A DNA stretch of 64,000 bases from Siphlonurus alternatus (taxonomy: Eukaryota > Arthropoda > Insecta > Ephemeroptera > Siphlonuridae). Each line of letters begins with the position of its first letter. Position 1 is the stretch's first letter. Shown in pieces: positions 20,312-64,000 of this stretch. The notes beneath the pieces are model-generated. The model searched no databases and was not told the origin of the DNA. It saw nothing but the letters and a program-made list of their open reading frames with translations. The stretch spans positions 7,199,431 through 7,263,430 of the forward strand of contig OX463784.1 of assembly GCA_949825025.1 (NCBI GenBank). Reading direction: 5' to 3'. Made by a program: the position numbers and the translations under genes.

Positions 20312-25803
<5,492 letters not shown>

Positions 25804-30800: not shown

Positions 30801-33189
30801 TGTAATATATATTTTATTCCAGGTTTTTAAAATAAATTGAAAAATAATTTTTTAAAAAAATATATACTGTAATTTGATGAACTTCTTTATGACGTCACGG
30901 TCAACAAAAAATGAAAAATAAATTGGGGTACTGACCGGTATTTGAGCTAGCAATACTAGTAAAAAGTACTGTGAATTCTATGAAGAACGAGCCCTATTAG
31001 AGCATTCTACGACAATTTGCTGATTTTTTATGAAATTTTAAAAGTTTTTTTGATGACGTCATATATACCATTGAATCTCAAATGGGGAAATGCATCAGTT
31101 AAGGTAGAGATAACGTCGAACAGCTGTTCGACGTAATCCCCTTTGATTAACATGTAAACCTTAGCAAATTGACAAAAATTCTGAAATTTTTTTGAGAGGC
31201 AGATATTAGTGCCTAAAAGCCATAGCAAAAGTTTCAAAAACATTTAACGAGCCGATTTTTTTAAATTAATTTTTTAGTTTGGCTCTCCATGGGAAAGCCC
31301 TATGCTGAAAATTAAAAAAATTAATTAAAAAAAATCGGCTCGTTAAATCGTTTTGAAATTTTTTCTATGGCACTAATATCTGCCTCTCAAAAAAATTTCA
31401 GAATTTTTGTCAATTTGCTAAGGTTTACATGTTAATCAAAGGGCATTACGTCGATCAGCTGTTCGGCATTATCTCTACCTTAACATTGCTAAAATGAAAA
31501 GTTATTGAAGTACGCGGACGAATTTCAAACCTTCATTATCGTCATTCTAGTACCTGAAAACCTTGCAAATGAAGTTTTGGTTACATTTTAATATTAAGTA
31601 TGGGATTTGGCAATGTTAACTGATCTATTTTCCCATTTAAGATTCAATGCTATGACGTCATTTTTGAGAGGTTTTAAAAATTCATATAAAATCAGGAAAT
31701 TGTCGTAGAATGCTGTAATAGGGCTTGTTCTTCATGAAATTCTCGTGCCTTTTGAAATGTTGACAAAAACTTGAAACTTTTTTTTTTGTCAATACCCCAT
31801 TATGATAAAATAATCAACATTTTTTAAGACTCAGAAACATAACAGAAGCTTCAAGTGTTCCCAGTCTGGAAAATTTTCTCCATAAGCCTCCATGCTAGAA
31901 AATTTGAATTTTTTTAGTAACTATTAAAGCAACCAATTTAAAGCTTCTCTTACCCCCATTTAGGGGTCTTCTGATAATGAATCAACATTTCATTTTTCTC
32001 TAAAAAATTTCCTTAATGCCAAAAATGCAATTTCGAGTTTTTTTTTAACATAGGGTTAGATAGGACGGTGGGAACACCGCAAAATCAGCTGACTTGAAGC
32101 CTCCATTACGAAAAAAATATAAATTAATTCCTTTACAATGAAACTTGATAAATTTAAAATCCATTGAAATCGTGTTGTAAATAATTCATATATAATTTTT
32201 ATTACAATAGATTCCAGAATTCAAATTAAATTAAAATATAATACTTATAAAAATAGAAAAAATTTATAAACAAAAAATTACTTACGATAATATGATGCAT
32301 CCTGCAAATAAACGAATTAAATATTAATACAAGTTCTTTATAATTAGTTTACTCTGAACGCTTACTTTTAATTGAAAGTTAAGAAGTAAAAGTAAATTTC
32401 CCGAATTAAAACAATATTCACCTTTTAATTCTTTTATTCACTATTTAGTTCTCTCATCATCTAATTCTTTCCTATTTTATTCGTAATCAGAGACCCTACA
32501 GAGAACTCCGTGTCTTATGGCCAGAAATTTTACCAGCTTGGCCGAGCTTCACTGTAACTGAGAGTGGCGGCGCCACTGAATCGCAGTGGCACGGCACGGT
32601 TCTCGCTGGCTGCGCAGGCAATACCAGCAAGCAAGAACCGGGCCGTGCCGAACATTTAGCAGCTCCGCCACTCTCAGTTACAGTGAAGCTCTGATCAAAT
32701 CCCTGGCCATATGACACGGAGGTCTCTGTAAGGTCTCTGATTCGTAATAAGAGGAAAAAATACGAGATTATATTATTATCTTCTTTCCTCTTGTATTACG
32801 AATAAAATGTTAGAAATTTTCTTTCTCTTTTTCATCCTCATTTTGAGCAAGCAAGAAATAAGATGTAATATAATAATATTATAATAATAATATAATATAA
32901 TATAATATAATATAATATAATATAATATAATATAATATAATATAATATAATATAATATAATATAATATAATATAATATAATATAATATAATATAATATAA
33001 TATAATATAATATAATATAATATAATATAATATAATATAATATAATATAATATAATATAATAAGATTAGGTTTAAAGCATGAGTTGAAGACGTAAATATT
33101 CAACTAAAGTTGACCCAAATTTTCACCTGAGATTGTGATGACGTCACAGTCATCAGCAGTAGCAGAGCGGCGATCACGTTGGTAGCCAT
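27837..33189 (-). CDS. CTL-5: secreted C-type lectin (158 aa) with a 16-nt microexon
   Basis: Minus-strand exons: 33189-33127 (signal peptide MATNVIAALLLLMTVTSS, start in CCACCATGG), 32301-32286 (only 16 nt, DASYY), 30694-30621, 29553-29439, 28045-27837 (TAG). Phases 0,1,0,1 match the other CTL genes once exon 2 is omitted. The mature protein is almost only the lectin domain: VRLGGLTGKNYFFSEKQ, MSWMEARTFC (C61), MWLNGENLAFEDW, then C134, C147 and FIC (C155). The motif position reads GEPSS, close to an EPN/EPS type, and WND reads WYD, so some sugar binding may remain. The introns contain a MULE-like MITE, a (TATAA)n array and nested foldbacks. Divergent paralogue of CTL-1 and CTL-6. Confidence 0.88.
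28177..28389. mobile_element. Foldback MITE family E, copy 2
   Basis: Ends AAGGTGGATTCACATGGC and GCCATCTGAATCCACCTT; interior GCGACGCGAATAATGCGC. Inserted into repeat N. Confidence 0.85.
28416..28570. mobile_element. Foldback family D, complete (155 bp)
   Basis: GGTGCGATTCACGAAGCAGT and ACTGCTTCGTGAATCGCAC ends; the arms repeat AACGTGGTTAA motifs. Inserted into repeat N. Confidence 0.87.
29095..29231. mobile_element. Foldback family C, short copy
   Basis: GGGGCATTCACAAAGCCTTA and GGGCTTTGTGAATACCC ends, CCACATTTAGGGCTCGAT arms; lacks the 500-bp centre of 18474-19154. In CTL-5 last intron. Confidence 0.85.
29670..29935 (-). mobile_element. SINE with tRNA-like head, minus orientation
   Basis: On the minus strand, CGCAGTGGTATACGCTTCTG and GGTCGTCAGTTCGATCCCAG resemble tRNA A and B boxes. 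The body includes CCTCAGTCAGGATGG and CTGAGGAAACCATGG, the core seen in the 5S SINEs. In CTL-5 intron between 29553 and 30621. Confidence 0.75.
30922..31800. mobile_element. Foldback element split by a family B MITE
   Basis: TGGGGTACTGAC and GTCAATACCCCA, plus ATGAAGAACGAGCCCTATTA and its inverse, form arms of about 180 bp around the MITE at 31103-31479. Confidence 0.8.
31103..31479. mobile_element. TTAA MITE family B (377 bp), nested
   Basis: TTAA at 31099-31102 and 31480-31483; ends GGTAGAGATAACG and ATTATCTCTACC. Confidence 0.9.
32488..32739. mobile_element. MULE-like MITE with 9-bp target duplication
   Basis: Long inverted repeats from CAGAGACCCTACAGAGAACT to AGGTCTCTG; both flanks carry ATTCGTAAT (32479-32487, 32740-32748). 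A 9-bp duplication is typical of Mutator-like elements. Centre rich in GC (GGCGGCGCCACTG). In CTL-5 intron 1, inside repeat N. Confidence 0.85.
32880..33062. repeat. (TATAA)n array, about 36 units
   Basis: Pure pentanucleotide array in CTL-5 intron 1, 65 bp from exon 1, embedded in a copy of repeat N. Confidence 0.95.
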
Positions 33190-43118: not shown

Positions 43119-52949
<9,831 letters not shown>

Positions 52950-59549: not shown

Positions 59550-60018
59550 CAGGGACCCTAAAGAGACCTCCGTGTCTTATAGTCAGAAATTAGACCAGCT
59601 TGGCCGAGCTTCACTGTAACTGAGAGTGGCGGCGCCACTGAATCGCAGCGGCACGGCCCGGTTCTTGTCACTGGATGCGCTGGCAATTTCAGCCAGCGAG
59701 AACTGGGCCGTGCCGAACATTTAGCAGCGCCGCCACAGTTACAGTACAGGGCTAATCCTCTATTGAACTGGGTAAAGTCACTCACGACCGTTACAAAAAA
59801 AATTGGATTGTTGAAATTTGTAAACAAAATGCAAATAACCCCTTTTTAACCAATAGGAAGGCGTTTCAGCAAAAAGGGTTATTTCTAAGCCAATCAGAAT
59901 TCAGAATTGGGCCCCCATAAGCCGGAAGGGAGTAACTATACCCCCTACAATAGAGGAATAGCCCTGTTACAGTGAAGCTCTGATCAAATCCCTGGCCATA
60001 AGACACGGAGGTCTCTGA
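59550..60018. mobile_element. MULE-like MITE, second copy, interrupted
   Basis: CAGGGACCCTAAAGAGACCT to GGAGGTCTCTG, the same family as 32488-32739, split by the hAT-like element at 59757-59966. No clear 9-bp duplication here. Confidence 0.8.
59757..59966. mobile_element. hAT-like MITE (210 bp) nested in the MULE-like MITE
   Basis: CAGGGCTAATCCTCTATTG and CAATAGAGGAATAGCCCTG ends; flanks TTACAGTA and TTACAGTG form an 8-bp duplication with one later change. The paralogous MITE at 32488-32739 shows the empty site CAGTTACAGTGAAGC. Confidence 0.9.
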
Positions 60019-60169: not shown

Positions 60170-61681
60170 ATGTGTATAGAATATTATATGATTATAACAT
60201 TTAAACAAGGACGTGGAGTTGCAACTCAATTTAAAAAAAAACATGGACAAACCCCTTTTTTAAAGAGTCAACTCAAAAATACTGGTGAAGTAGCTGTTTT
60301 ATCTTCAGATGACAGTTTTATTTTCTACTTAGTTACTAAATCTGTCCATAACAGCTATCCTGACCACTCAAATATACTACTTGCATTAAAAAATTTAAGA
60401 AATATCTGTGAGATTTTAAGTATAAAAAAACTCGCAATTCCTCGTTTAGCATGTGGCAGAGACGGTTTCAACTGGTCTACTATAAAACAAGACATTATTT
60501 CAGTGTTCAAAGATCTTGACATTGAAATTGTTGCTTATTATGGATGGAAGACATTAGCAAAGAAAGTTGCAAGTAATGATGATGAAACAGCTGTTAAAGA
60601 ACTCTTTGAGGAATCAGCCCAATCTACTCTAGCAAACGTCATTACCGCTAGGGCCCCTCCTTCTAATAACCTGGCGGTCCTTGTAAGTTCCGGGCAATGC
60701 CAGACCTCTACCTTGCGAGAGAGTACCCGCCCCTCAATTGTCACGCCTGACATAGTGAGGGTGGAGGGACTGCCAGTGCCAGCCACGAAGGAGCAGATGT
60801 CTAATACCCGGGGCGAGAAGTCAGGCCTCGCTCAGGTGAACGACGGTACCACCCCGGGCGAGGAGTCAGGCCTCGCTTCGGTGAACGACGGTACCACCCC
60901 GGGCGAGGAGTCAGGCCTCGCTTCGGTGAACGACGGTACCACCCCGGGCGAGGAGTCAGGCCTCGTTTCGGTGAACGACGGTACCACCCCGGGCGAGGAG
61001 TCAGGCCTCGCTTCGGTGAACGACGGTACCACCCCGGGCGAGGAGTCAGGCCTTGCTCCGGTGAACGACGGTACCACCCCGGGCGAGGAGTCAGGCCTCG
61101 CTTCGGTGAACGACGGTACCACCCCGGGCGAGGAGTCAGGCCTCGTTTCGGTGAACGACGGTACCACCCCGGGCGAGGAGTCAGGCCTCGCTCCGGCGAA
61201 CGACGGTATTGCCCCGAGTGAGGAGTCAAGTCTTGTTTTGGTAAACAATAGTTTGCCTGAATCAGGACCACCCTTACCAGATCCTGTATGTTCTCTTGAA
61301 TTGAATCAAGATATTATAGATCTGAACTCATTACATCCAAGACTCAAAGCTTTTTTACTAACGATTTTAGATAATAAATTCCAATTTACAAATGATCTAT
61401 TAAAAAATGATGAAACCGCTGCTAAGAAAAGTGCAATTAATTCAGAAAAATCAATTAATGAAATTTCATCTGTTGTCTCACCATCCATTATTAGTAAAAA
61501 TGATACTATTAATGATAATGTTTTGAGTTCAAATGTTGATAATTTTAATCTGGCATCTCAATTGAAATCCCCCATTAAAAATTCTCAGGAAGATACACAA
61601 TCTTCCCCTGTGAGATCACGGCTCCGTGCCAGTACACTAAACAGTATCTCCACCAAATTGCCCAACAAAAAAAAAACTTAA
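60170..61681 (+). CDS. LINE ORF1 with TARG1/OARD1-like macrodomain (503 aa)
   Basis: Open frame directly upstream of the retrotransposon ORF2. Residues about 1-125 resemble the OARD1/TARG1 ADP-ribose glycohydrolase family: GRGVATQFKKKHG (12-26), GEVAVL (39-44), FYLVTK with K57 at the catalytic Lys position, PRLACGRDGF (91-100) with D98 at the catalytic Asp position, and VAYYGW after the last strand. The first 25-30 residues of that fold (including the VKGD loop) are missing from this frame. Residues about 215-364 are nine or ten 15-residue repeats (GEESGLASVNDGTTP) from a GC-rich 45-bp minisatellite. The C-terminus is Asn/Ser/Lys-rich. No CCHC knuckle, PHD or RRM motif is visible. A domestically captured macrodomain acting on ADP-ribosylated targets is inference. 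The alternative is a host OARD1-like pseudogene joined by chance, which the long shared frame makes less likely. Confidence 0.85.
   Translation: MCIEYYMIITFKQGRGVATQFKKKHGQTPFLKSQLKNTGEVAVLSSDDSFIFYLVTKSVHNSYPDHSNILLALKNLRNICEILSIKKLAIPRLACGRDGFNWSTIKQDIISVFKDLDIEIVAYYGWKTLAKKVASNDDETAVKELFEESAQSTLANVITARAPPSNNLAVLVSSGQCQTSTLRESTRPSIVTPDIVRVEGLPVPATKEQMSNTRGEKSGLAQVNDGTTPGEESGLASVNDGTTPGEESGLASVNDGTTPGEESGLVSVNDGTTPGEESGLASVNDGTTPGEESGLAPVNDGTTPGEESGLASVNDGTTPGEESGLVSVNDGTTPGEESGLAPANDGIAPSEESSLVLVNNSLPESGPPLPDPVCSLELNQDIIDLNSLHPRLKAFLLTILDNKFQFTNDLLKNDETAAKKSAINSEKSINEISSVVSPSIISKNDTINDNVLSSNVDNFNLASQLKSPIKNSQEDTQSSPVRSRLRASTLNSISTKLPNKKKT
60812..61261 (+). repeat. In-frame 45-bp minisatellite in LINE ORF1
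   Basis: Nine good units and one degenerate unit of 45 bp encoding GEESGLASVNDGTTP. It is GC-rich against an AT-rich element. Units differ by few substitutions (for example Ala/Val and Ser/Pro in the GLxxV position), suggesting recent expansion. The minus strand is also open in two frames here, which is only a by-product of the repeat. Confidence 0.95.
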
Positions 61682-64000
61682 TGTTCAGGTTCACTCAGCC
61701 CCATGTAATATTAAAATTCTTCAGCTTAACTTACCAGGCCTAAAAAATAAATTACCAAAATTTGAGTATTTTCTTGAAATGGTTGATTGTGATATAATTA
61801 TATTATGTGAACATGGGCTGAATGAATCTGAAATTATAACAATAAATTTTAAAAATTTTATGATAGTTTCATATTACTGTAGAGATATTCAAAAATGTGG
61901 GGGAGTAGTAATTCTATCTCGTAAAGGTTCAAATATAAATGATATTAAAATAAAATCCATTGAATCAGTTTTTGAATGCTGCATAGCGAAATTAGTAATT
62001 AACAATACAACAAACATTTATTTTGCTTCTATATATCGCCCACCTAATATATCTAGAGTGATGAAAAAAATTCAGAATTTTGACAACACAGAAAATAATA
62101 TAAAACCATTCTTAAAAGAATTTGAAATGTTATGCAAAAAATTAATTAAATACTGTAAAAATAATGATGATTTTTTTATTATTGCGGGTGACGTAAATCT
62201 TAATTTATTTATTGATGATGCAAATGTAATTTTATATAAAGATATACTGGACTCATACAAGTTGGAAATTGTTAATAGTTCCGCTACTAGAGAAACAATG
62301 AAAACGGCTACTTTAATTGATCATATTATTAAAAGTACATCTGCTATTAATACTAATTATAAAACTGAAAAAACAACTCTGTCGGACCATAACTATACTA
62401 TAGTCACAATAACATTAAATAACTCGAAGAACATTGATAAAATACAAGAAAAACAATTTTATTATAAACGAATATTTGACAAATGCAATTTAGATAATTT
62501 TCTGCTCCTATTAATTCGTGAAGAATGGAATGATTTATTAAATCCTGATCTCAATTCAAATGAGAGATGGTCAAAATTTCTTGAAATTTTTATTTATCAT
62601 TTCAACGAGGCTTTTCCTGTTGTTAAAAGAAAAATTTCAAGTAACAAAAATAAACCTTCCTGGATACTCAATAACCCCCATCTTTACGAACAAGGGATTT
62701 CTTTAAAACGCTTACACTATGATGTAAAATTTACTGACCCAAATTTAGAGTCTACTTATAAAAAAGAAATGAAATCTTATAAACAAAATATGGCCACCGC
62801 TAAATTTAAAGAGAATGACCATGAAATAAAAGGAGCTAATAATAAAATTAAAGCTACGTGGAATATAATTAATAAAGAATGCAAAACAAAGAAAACAAAT
62901 GTTAATAATAAGAATAATTATGAATTATGTATAAATAGTGTAACGATTACAGACCCCAAACTAATTTGCAATTTATTTAATAATTTTTTTGTCAAGACAA
63001 TTGAAAATATAATAACAGAAAAATTTCCTTTTAATTATTCTAATACTTTAATTATTGTCGATTCTGATAAAAGTAAAACGAAATTAAATTTTAGTTCGAT
63101 AGACCCGATTTATATTTTAAATCGAATGAAATCCCTTCCTAATAAGTATGCAGCTGGCCCAGACGAAATACCATATACTGTTGTAAAATATTGTGCTTCT
63201 GTTTTGTCTGTCCCTTTATCTAATTTAATTAACCATTCAATATCAGATGGTATATTTCCTGATTGTTTAAAGGATTCTAAGATTTATGCAACTCATAAAA
63301 AAGGCCCAACTTTCATTATTGATAATTACAGACCAATATCAAATACATCTGTTTTTGGCAAATTATTTGAGAATACATTAGACGATCAAATTACGGATTA
63401 TCAAACAGAAAATCATTTAATTGCTCCCTGTCAACATGGATTCTTGAAAGACCGTTCTACTGATACAGCACTATTTGATCTTTTAAGCCACGTTTATATG
63501 GCAATAGATAATAAACTATTTTGCGTTGCAATATTTTTTGATTTATCTAAAGCGTTTGATAGTCTAAATAAAGATGTATTATTGAATAAATTTGATAACA
63601 TGGGAATAGGAGTTTCGAGTCGTAATCTATTAGATTCATATCTAACTAACAGACAACAATATGTTGAATTAAATTCAAATTCTAACGGCCAAAATATTAC
63701 ATATAAATCAGACAAATTACCGATTACACTTGGAATTCCTCAAGGAGGAAAAATGTCAGCCACATTGTTTAATACAGGAACAAATGACTTATCAGATCAT
63801 GTCAAGAATGCGGTATTAGTAAAGTATGCTGATGATATTACAGCTATAATCACAGCAGAAGCCGAAGATGAATTAATTCGTAAGATTAAACTTACTATTG
63901 AAGAGGTACATACATGGTGTACAAATAATAAGCTAATATTAAATTCAACTAAAACCGAATACATCCAATTTCATTCCCCTAGACAAATCCCTTTGAATAG
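61641..64000 (+). CDS. LINE ORF2: APE endonuclease and reverse transcriptase, runs off right edge
   Basis: The frame is open from 61641 to the window end with no stop. AP-type endonuclease: LQLNLPGL, LCEHGLNE (catalytic Glu), GGVVIL, YRPP, AGDVNLN (62184-62201), TLIDHI and SDHNY (about 62382). Reverse transcriptase: AAGPDEIPY, NYRPIS, FFDLSKAFDSL, LGIPQGGKMSATLF and YADD (63825-63836), then NKLILNSTKTE. The layout (ORF1, APE, RT) fits the Jockey/CR1/L2 group of non-LTR elements; I cannot assign the clade. The first in-frame ATG (61779) lies inside the endonuclease, after LQLNLPGL, so translation probably begins upstream without ATG or by a shift from ORF1. The frames overlap at 61641-61681, next to a run of ten A (61667-61676). 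No frameshift or stop is seen, so the copy may be young. Confidence 0.95.

What the first reader, a model, noticed from the sequence alone, without database searches (positions are those of the whole stretch)
60170..60560. TARG1/OARD1-like macrodomain at the start of a LINE ORF1
The first 125 residues of ORF1 carry the OARD1-type signature (GRGVATQF, GEVAVL, LVTK, PRLACGRDGF), with K57 and D98 at the catalytic Lys and Asp positions of TARG1. Common LINE ORF1 accessory domains are RRM, CCHC, PHD and esterase; I know of no described class with this hydrolase. It could remove ADP-ribose from the element's RNP, its cDNA ends or host PARP targets. Sequence match is seen; the role is inference.
Basis: partly seen in the sequence, partly recalled or inferred. 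Interest (0 to 1): 0.88.

Follow-up and report, generated by a model that had tools for sequence, protein, structure and literature searches.

The report
LINE retrotransposon carrying an ADP-ribose eraser
A family of jumping genes in this animal genome encodes, in its first protein, a well-preserved copy of the TARG1-type enzyme domain that strips ADP-ribose marks, which suggests that the element fights or exploits a host modification system; the copy in the window is a recent, front-truncated one.

Summary
The macrodomain is real. ORF1 (60170-61681) matches human TARG1/OARD1 (E 1.9e-19) and keeps the catalytic Lys and Asp. The window copy is a young 5'-truncated insertion beginning at 60193, 99.8% identical to a full-length copy over 4933 nt, so "at the start of ORF1" comes from truncation and this copy lacks the domain's first strands. 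Full-length copies of the nearer subfamilies have ORF1 frames of 700-789 codons: basic Q/P/R/N-rich N-terminus, whole macrodomain, variable linker, tail; then ORF2 (endonuclease, reverse transcriptase). The genome gave 150 scored matches. Of 29 that I chose and fetched across the divergence range, 28 have ORF2 downstream; the exception looks like the host's own OARD1 gene. Lys84/Asp125 equivalents are kept in 17 of 17 LINE macrodomains. dN/dS is 0.05-0.20 in 8 of the 10 pairs with dS under 2. At least one exchange of ORF1 between ORF2 lineages occurred. Best reading: the element's RNA-packaging protein carries a functional (ADP-ribosyl)hydrolase, taken from an animal TARG1 gene, that clears host ADP-ribosylation from the RNP or integration intermediate. 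Activity and target are inferred.

The parts
60193..64000 (+). 5'-truncated LINE copy; runs out of the window and ends at about window coordinate 65123 with an (AAAT)n tail
   Evidence: L107 2200-7130 aligns to window 60193 onward plus the adjoining stretch L132 at 99.78% over 4933 nt, 7 mismatches, 2 gap openings; junction also
60170..61681 (+). remnant of ORF1, 503 aa; codons 1-8 are flanking DNA, the rest LINE ORF1
   Evidence: the ORF1 frame is 789 codons in L107-L110
60197..60562 (+). TARG1/OARD1-type macrodomain without its first strands; catalytic Lys57 at 60338-60340 and Asp98 at 60461-60463
   Evidence: phmmer against PDB, alignments
60806..61228 (+). in-frame minisatellite in ORF1, 45-bp unit, 9.4 copies (15-aa repeat), in the linker after the macrodomain
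   Evidence: TRF; the same 9.4 copies in L107-L112, 9.0 in L120, none of this period in L113, L122, L125
61229..61681 (+). ORF1 C-terminal tail
   Evidence: 68 of 115 aligned residues identical to P0001
61641..64000 (+). ORF2 open frame (cut by the window end), +1 relative to ORF1 with 38 nt overlap; AP-type endonuclease then reverse transcriptase
   Evidence: the full ORF2 frame is 1013 codons in L107
63294..63965 (+). reverse transcriptase domain with YADD
   Evidence: Pfam RVT_1 5.4e-28, residues 529-752 of the frame from 61710
59562..60016 (.). neighbour, not part of the LINE: element with inverted terminal repeats
   Evidence: 37-nt arms 84% complementary; relative at 32488-32684

Best explanation
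The window holds a recent 5'-truncated copy of an APE-type LINE whose ORF1 protein has a basic, probably disordered N-terminal region (likely RNA binding and packaging) followed by a TARG1-type macrodomain. The LINE lineage took the domain long ago, most likely from an animal TARG1/OARD1 gene, and has kept its catalytic pair. Proposed mechanism: ORF1p coats the element RNA in cis. The macrodomain, using the Lys/Asp pair of TARG1, removes mono-ADP-ribose that host PARPs put on the RNP proteins (Asp/Glu esters), on RNA or cDNA ends, or on DNA at the nicked target, so that export, reverse transcription or integration is not blocked. This is the logic of viral macrodomains that counter PARPs (that comparison is recalled). 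Shown: domain, predicted fold, catalytic residues, linkage to ORF2, many recent copies, purifying selection. Inferred: RNA binding, hydrolysis, substrate, benefit to the element.
Against: No activity was measured. Human Ser35 is Asp, Gly or Ala in the LINE rows, and Gly41 of the MGAG loop is replaced in 10 of 17, so substrate or rate may differ. In 2 of 17 rows (L134, L135) Gly123 is Lys. Two of the 10 less saturated pairs give higher dN/dS (L120-L131 0.45, L124-L128 0.31; both distant pairs); the other 68 pairs are saturated or show dS of 2.00 or more. Residues that P0001 shares with human OARD1 were not significantly better kept in the window than other residues (34 of 41 against 53 of 73, Fisher p 0.26). 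In mammals PARP1/2 help L1, so erasing their mark need not favour the element. Only a minority of the 10 ORF1s pass Pfam's Macro cut-off (3 of 10; 1 of 10, L131, has no Pfam match). The window copy itself lacks the first strands and is probably inactive.
Confidence: 0.62

Rival explanations
1. The macrodomain is a reader: it binds ADP-ribose or RNA to hold the LINE RNP at PARP-marked sites such as nicks at the integration site, without needing hydrolysis.
For: The ALC1-like class holds readers as well as erasers (PMC7050489, passages). PARP1/2 gather at L1 integration nicks (PMC8535693, passages). The residues at human Ser35 and Gly41 vary among the LINE rows.
Against: The catalytic Lys and Asp, which a pure reader should not need, are kept in 17 of 17 LINE macrodomains although these are only 34-49% identical to the probable host gene.
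Confidence: 0.2
2. The domain acts on DNA: like DarG and TARG1 it removes ADP-ribose from thymidine or DNA ends on the new cDNA during target-primed reverse transcription.
For: The only NCBIfam match of P0001 is DarG (3.3e-11, 43 bits, far below its cut-off of 250). TARG1 reverses thymidine ADP-ribosylation and needs Lys84 for it (PMC8501950, passages).
Against: TARG1 is clearly closer than DarG in sequence and fold. Whether this host has a DNA-modifying transferase was not tested.
Confidence: 0.12
3. Structural role: the captured macrodomain serves as a building part of ORF1p (for example oligomerisation or RNA contact) and its active site is kept only by fold constraints.
For: Insect LINEs do capture foreign domains, such as SF1 helicase in ORF1 of Jockey elements (PMC5563155, abstract and passages).
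Against: Both catalytic residues are invariant in 17 of 17 rows while neighbouring pocket residues vary.
Confidence: 0.06
4. Chance: a truncated host OARD1 gene beside an unrelated LINE.
For: From the window alone the domain sits at the very front of the ORF, next to a junction.
Against: 28 of 29 fetched loci have the same ORF1-ORF2 order, and the probable host gene is elsewhere (L136) and 34-49% identical to the LINE macrodomains.
Confidence: 0

Closest known systems
TARG1/OARD1 (C6orf130), ALC1-like class (ADP-ribosyl)hydrolase
   Different: Embedded in a LINE ORF1 (frames of 529-789 codons in unbroken copies) rather than a stand-alone protein of about 150 aa; Ser35 and Gly41 positions vary; long separate evolution.
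LINE ORF1 types I-V (classes as given in PMC4120745, passages read)
   Same: Two-ORF LINE with endonuclease and RT in ORF2; ORF1 modular and exchanged between ORF2 lineages, as reported there for the Jockey superfamily.
   Different: No RRM, CCHC, PHD or esterase reached E 0.05 in 10 ORF1s; a macrodomain instead. 'macro' occurs 0 times in that paper's main text.
Jockey LINEs with SF1 RNA helicase in ORF1 (PMC5563155, abstract and passages read)
   Same: Insect LINE ORF1 that captured a foreign enzyme domain and kept its motifs.
   Different: Helicase of RNA-virus origin there; ADP-ribosylhydrolase of probable animal origin here.
Viral macrodomains (alphavirus nsP3, coronavirus Mac1)
   Different: Not of the TARG1 class (alphavirus rows 11-14% identity). 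Their counter-PARP role is recalled, not from a call.

Membership tests
TARG1/ALC1-like macrodomain hydrolase | Macrodomain fold, closest to TARG1 | tested here: met
TARG1/ALC1-like macrodomain hydrolase | Catalytic Lys (human Lys84) and acidic partner at 125 | tested here: met
   26 of 26 rows; 17 of 17 LINE rows. PMC7050489 writes the partner as Glu125; the PDB sequence shows Asp there
TARG1/ALC1-like macrodomain hydrolase | Complete domain, strand 1 included | tested here: inconclusive
   Met in P0001 and in full-length copies such as L107, not met in the window copy, truncated at 60193
TARG1/ALC1-like macrodomain hydrolase | Hydrolysis of ADP-ribose esters | not testable with these tools
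   needs an enzyme assay
APE-type LINE (non-LTR retrotransposon) | ORF2 with AP endonuclease and reverse transcriptase | tested here: met
   RVT_1 1.8e-30 in L107; Exo_endo_phos_2 1.4e-7 in L114. In the window ORF2 the endonuclease is only sub-threshold in Pfam (E 0.066), and L107 and L120 show no endonuclease match at E 0.01
APE-type LINE (non-LTR retrotransposon) | Dispersed copies, variable 5' truncation, common 3' end with simple tail | tested here: met
   copies on many contigs; window and L111 truncated at different points; shared (AAAT)n 3' end in L107-L112 and the window copy
APE-type LINE (non-LTR retrotransposon) | Target-site duplications | tested here: inconclusive
   6 copies (L107-L112) examined: no match in L108, only 7-9 nt chance-like matches in the other 5; the window copy was not put through this test
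LINE ORF1 type I/II/III/IV | RRM-CCHC, L1-type, PHD or esterase domain | tested here: not met
   none at E 0.05 by Pfam in 10 ORF1s; would fall in type V, 'unclassified'. More sensitive profile comparison was not run
A named LINE clade (CR1, Jockey, L2 and others) | Placement of RT with clade references | not tested
DarG | NCBIfam DarG model at cut-off; paired DarT | tested here: not met
   43 bits (P0001) and 38.5 bits (window) against cut-off 250; the neighbour is a LINE ORF2. DarT itself was not searched for

The most novel reading that the evidence does not exclude
A whole clade of animal LINEs has carried, through long evolution and at least one ORF1/ORF2 exchange, an active (ADP-ribosyl)hydrolase that disarms a PARP-based defence against retrotransposons. 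It would be the first transposon-encoded eraser of ADP-ribosylation that I know of, and evidence that ADP-ribosylation restricts LINEs in that host.
Probability: 0.5. Interest if true: 0.92.

Novelty: new variant of a known kind. Interest (0 to 1): 0.83.

Why it matters
Macrodomains are known (recalled) as counter-defence tools of RNA viruses. A retrotransposon ORF1 that keeps a TARG1 catalytic pair under purifying selection across subfamilies, and has moved between ORF2 lineages, points to ADP-ribosylation as a force on retrotransposons in animals. That makes an open question directly testable: does PARP activity restrict or assist LINEs in this host, and can the element erase it? It also adds a class to the short list of LINE ORF1 domains.

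Tried and rejected
Chance next to a host gene: rejected by 28 of 29 fetched loci. Domain truly at the ORF1 start: rejected (5' truncation; residues 1-290 of P0001 gave no alignment above the 95% point of shuffles in the six frames of two upstream stretches, 12 comparisons). The first AF2 model, on a 2-row alignment, was useless (mean pLDDT 33.5) and was replaced. Protein search with the macrodomain alone found nothing (0 of 9 candidates at E 1e-3); with the full ORF1 length it found 1 of 103 (P0001). The ORF2 search returned 6 relatives at E 1e-10; none is listed with the 3902-nt contig length of P0001, so ORF2 linkage of P0001 itself is not shown. Two prokaryote genome scans gave no relative, nor did a viral-contig scan with the ORF2 protein. 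In the viral-contig scan with the macrodomain 1 of 3 stretches passed (L001, 15 residues only); I did not follow it up. The Fisher test of whether TARG1-shared residues are better kept was negative. A first tree with only two LINE rows left the origin open; adding subfamilies separated LINE+animal from phage, but LINE against the probable host gene stays weak (74/77). Planned and not obtained: a genome-wide check whether ORF2 relatives occur without the macrodomain.

Rows dropped or chosen: L112 was left out of the 26-row residue count (its frame is broken inside the domain). L117 and L123 have a broken ORF2 or ORF1 frame and were kept in the linkage count; stretches L127-L131 and L133-L135 end inside ORF2, so only part of ORF2 could align. 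The 29 fetched loci were chosen by me out of 150 scored matches to span identity bands; they are not a random sample. The dN/dS table uses 13 of these loci, one per group as I judged it. The tree uses 14 of the 79 viral loci, my choice.

Full report
What is there. ORF1 in the window (60170-61681, + strand, 503 aa) is followed by ORF2, which runs out of the window. Residues 12-123 of ORF1 match human OARD1/TARG1 by phmmer at E 1.9e-19. Pfam's Macro model scores 19.2 bits, under its cut-off of 22, so the domain is easily missed by Pfam. K57 and D98 align with human Lys84 and Asp125.

Why the domain seems to open ORF1. A relative, P0001 (710 aa, from a 3902-nt public contig), aligns with the window ORF1 from its residue 287 on and has 286 more residues in front. 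With them the macrodomain is complete and OARD1 matches at 7e-27 over residues 263-400. The whole genome of the window was then searched once. L107, a full-length copy on contig C1, matches the window from position 60193 onward and not before; over 4933 nt, to the 3' end beyond the window, the two are 99.78% identical with 7 mismatches and 2 gap openings. So the window has a recent, 5'-truncated LINE insertion cut inside the macrodomain. The eight codons before the junction, start codon included, come from flanking DNA.

A family trait, not an accident. The genome search scored 150 of 313 candidates and reports 150 matches, the window and the probable host gene included; 147 have no stop inside the match, and 66 are 98-99% identical over residues 9-141 (counted by hand). 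The rest go down to 39% identity in many groups. I fetched 29 loci chosen to span this range. In the first 25, an ORF2 match lies downstream of the macrodomain in 25 of 25 (partial in L117, L127 and L129, and the stretches L127-L131 end inside ORF2). In four more it does so in 3 of 4. The exception, L136, has a 167-codon frame and no ORF2 in the fetched stretch, matches human OARD1 at 1.5e-41 and is 51% identical to it: most likely the host's own gene.

Constraint. The Lys84 and Asp125 equivalents are present in 26 of 26 rows (24 fetched loci, the window and P0001, near-identical copies included; L112, broken inside the domain, left out) and in 17 of 17 LINE rows of a second alignment without near-identical family copies, where the positions of human Ser35 and Gly41 vary. 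Nei-Gojobori dN/dS was computed for 78 pairs of 13 loci. Most pairs are saturated at synonymous sites. The ten with dS shown under 2.00 give 0.05, 0.06, 0.06, 0.07, 0.07, 0.08, 0.19, 0.20, 0.31 and 0.45; the two highest are distant pairs. Between P0001 and the window, identity is 91 of 118 in the macrodomain, 38 of 72 just after it, 34 of 107 in the linker and 68 of 115 in the tail. A test of whether residues shared with human TARG1 are especially kept was not significant (34 of 41 against 53 of 73, p 0.26).

Exchange and origin. L125 shares its ORF1 N-terminus and macrodomain with L122 and L124 (60-65% and 85-87%; only 35% and 63% with L107), but its ORF2 with L107 (EN 73%, RT 73%; against 42% and 57% with L122). 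So an ORF1 module has moved between ORF2 lineages at least once, as reported for Jockey-superfamily LINEs (PMC4120745, passages read). In a tree of 33 macrodomains the 17 LINE rows, human OARD1 and the probable host gene separate from 14 phage rows (99/93), and the LINE rows form one group with weak support (74/77). This favours one old capture from an animal TARG1 gene. Only two animal genes were in the tree.

How it probably works. From papers: TARG1 removes ADP-ribose from Asp/Glu esters and nucleic-acid ends (PMC7050489, passages) and from thymidine, needing Lys84 (PMC8501950, passages). PARP1 and PARP2 gather at L1 integration nicks, and their loss lowers L1 retrotransposition (PMC8535693, passages). 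Inference: the LINE ORF1p binds its RNA through the basic N-terminus and brings a hydrolase that clears ADP-ribose from the RNP, the RNA or cDNA ends, or the target site. A reader-only role and a DNA-specific role are the main rivals. The mammalian PARP result cuts both ways, since PARPs helped L1 there.

Known or new. Searches for macrodomain with non-LTR retrotransposon (0 papers), macro domain with retrotransposon and ORF1 (2 papers, not relevant by title and abstract start), macro domain with transposable element, ADP-ribose and reverse transcriptase (1 paper; its passages concern TRADD-N proteins, some of them fused to retrotransposons), macrodomain with retrotransposon (31 papers, 25 listed, none relevant by title or abstract start), OARD1 with transposon (4 papers, not relevant by title and abstract start) and one more with five terms (0) found no description. 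The library holds open-licence papers only. Capture of enzymes by insect LINE ORF1 is known (helicase, PMC5563155, abstract and passages). Hence: new variant of a known kind.

Limits. The LINE clade was not placed for want of named references. Whether ORF2 relatives without a macrodomain exist in this genome is open, because every fetched locus was found through its macrodomain and the genome search with ORF2 did not complete. No clear target-site duplication was seen in six copies.

Noticed in passing
61641-61779 and L107, L111, L113-L116, L118, L120, L122, L124, L125, L127, L128, L130, L131 (ORF1/ORF2 junction): ORF2 overlaps the end of ORF1 in another frame and its first in-frame ATG lies after the start of the endonuclease homology in 16 of 16 rows looked at, so ORF2 probably starts by frameshift, reinitiation or a non-AUG start. 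The shift is +1 in the nearer subfamilies and +2 in L127, L128, L130 and L131 (L117 and L129, with broken or partial ORF2, are not informative).
   Followed up: partly
L125/L126 against L107 and L122/L124: ORF1 (N-terminus and macrodomain) and ORF2 have different nearest relatives: module exchange between LINE lineages (L125; L126 is its near copy).
   Followed up: partly
L136 760-1260: Probable host OARD1/TARG1 gene, 51% identical to human over the domain, no LINE ORF2 in the fetched stretch.
   Followed up: partly
60806-61228: GC-rich in-frame minisatellite in an otherwise AT-rich LINE; third-position GC 0.78 against 0.205 in the macrodomain. Present with the same copy number in L107-L112.
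   Followed up: partly
59562-60016: Element with inverted terminal repeats a little upstream of the LINE insertion, related to one at 32488-32684.
   Followed up: no
L008-L086 (IMG/VR): 79 of 115 matched viral-contig stretches encode a relative of the macrodomain; 11 phage records do too, some annotated as O-acetyl-ADP-ribose deacetylase 1-like.
   Followed up: partly
50978-51730 (-) and 23824-24117 (+): Chitin-binding Peritrophin-A domain (6.8e-8) and a weak C-type lectin match (0.0088, under cut-off), probably host exons.
   Followed up: no
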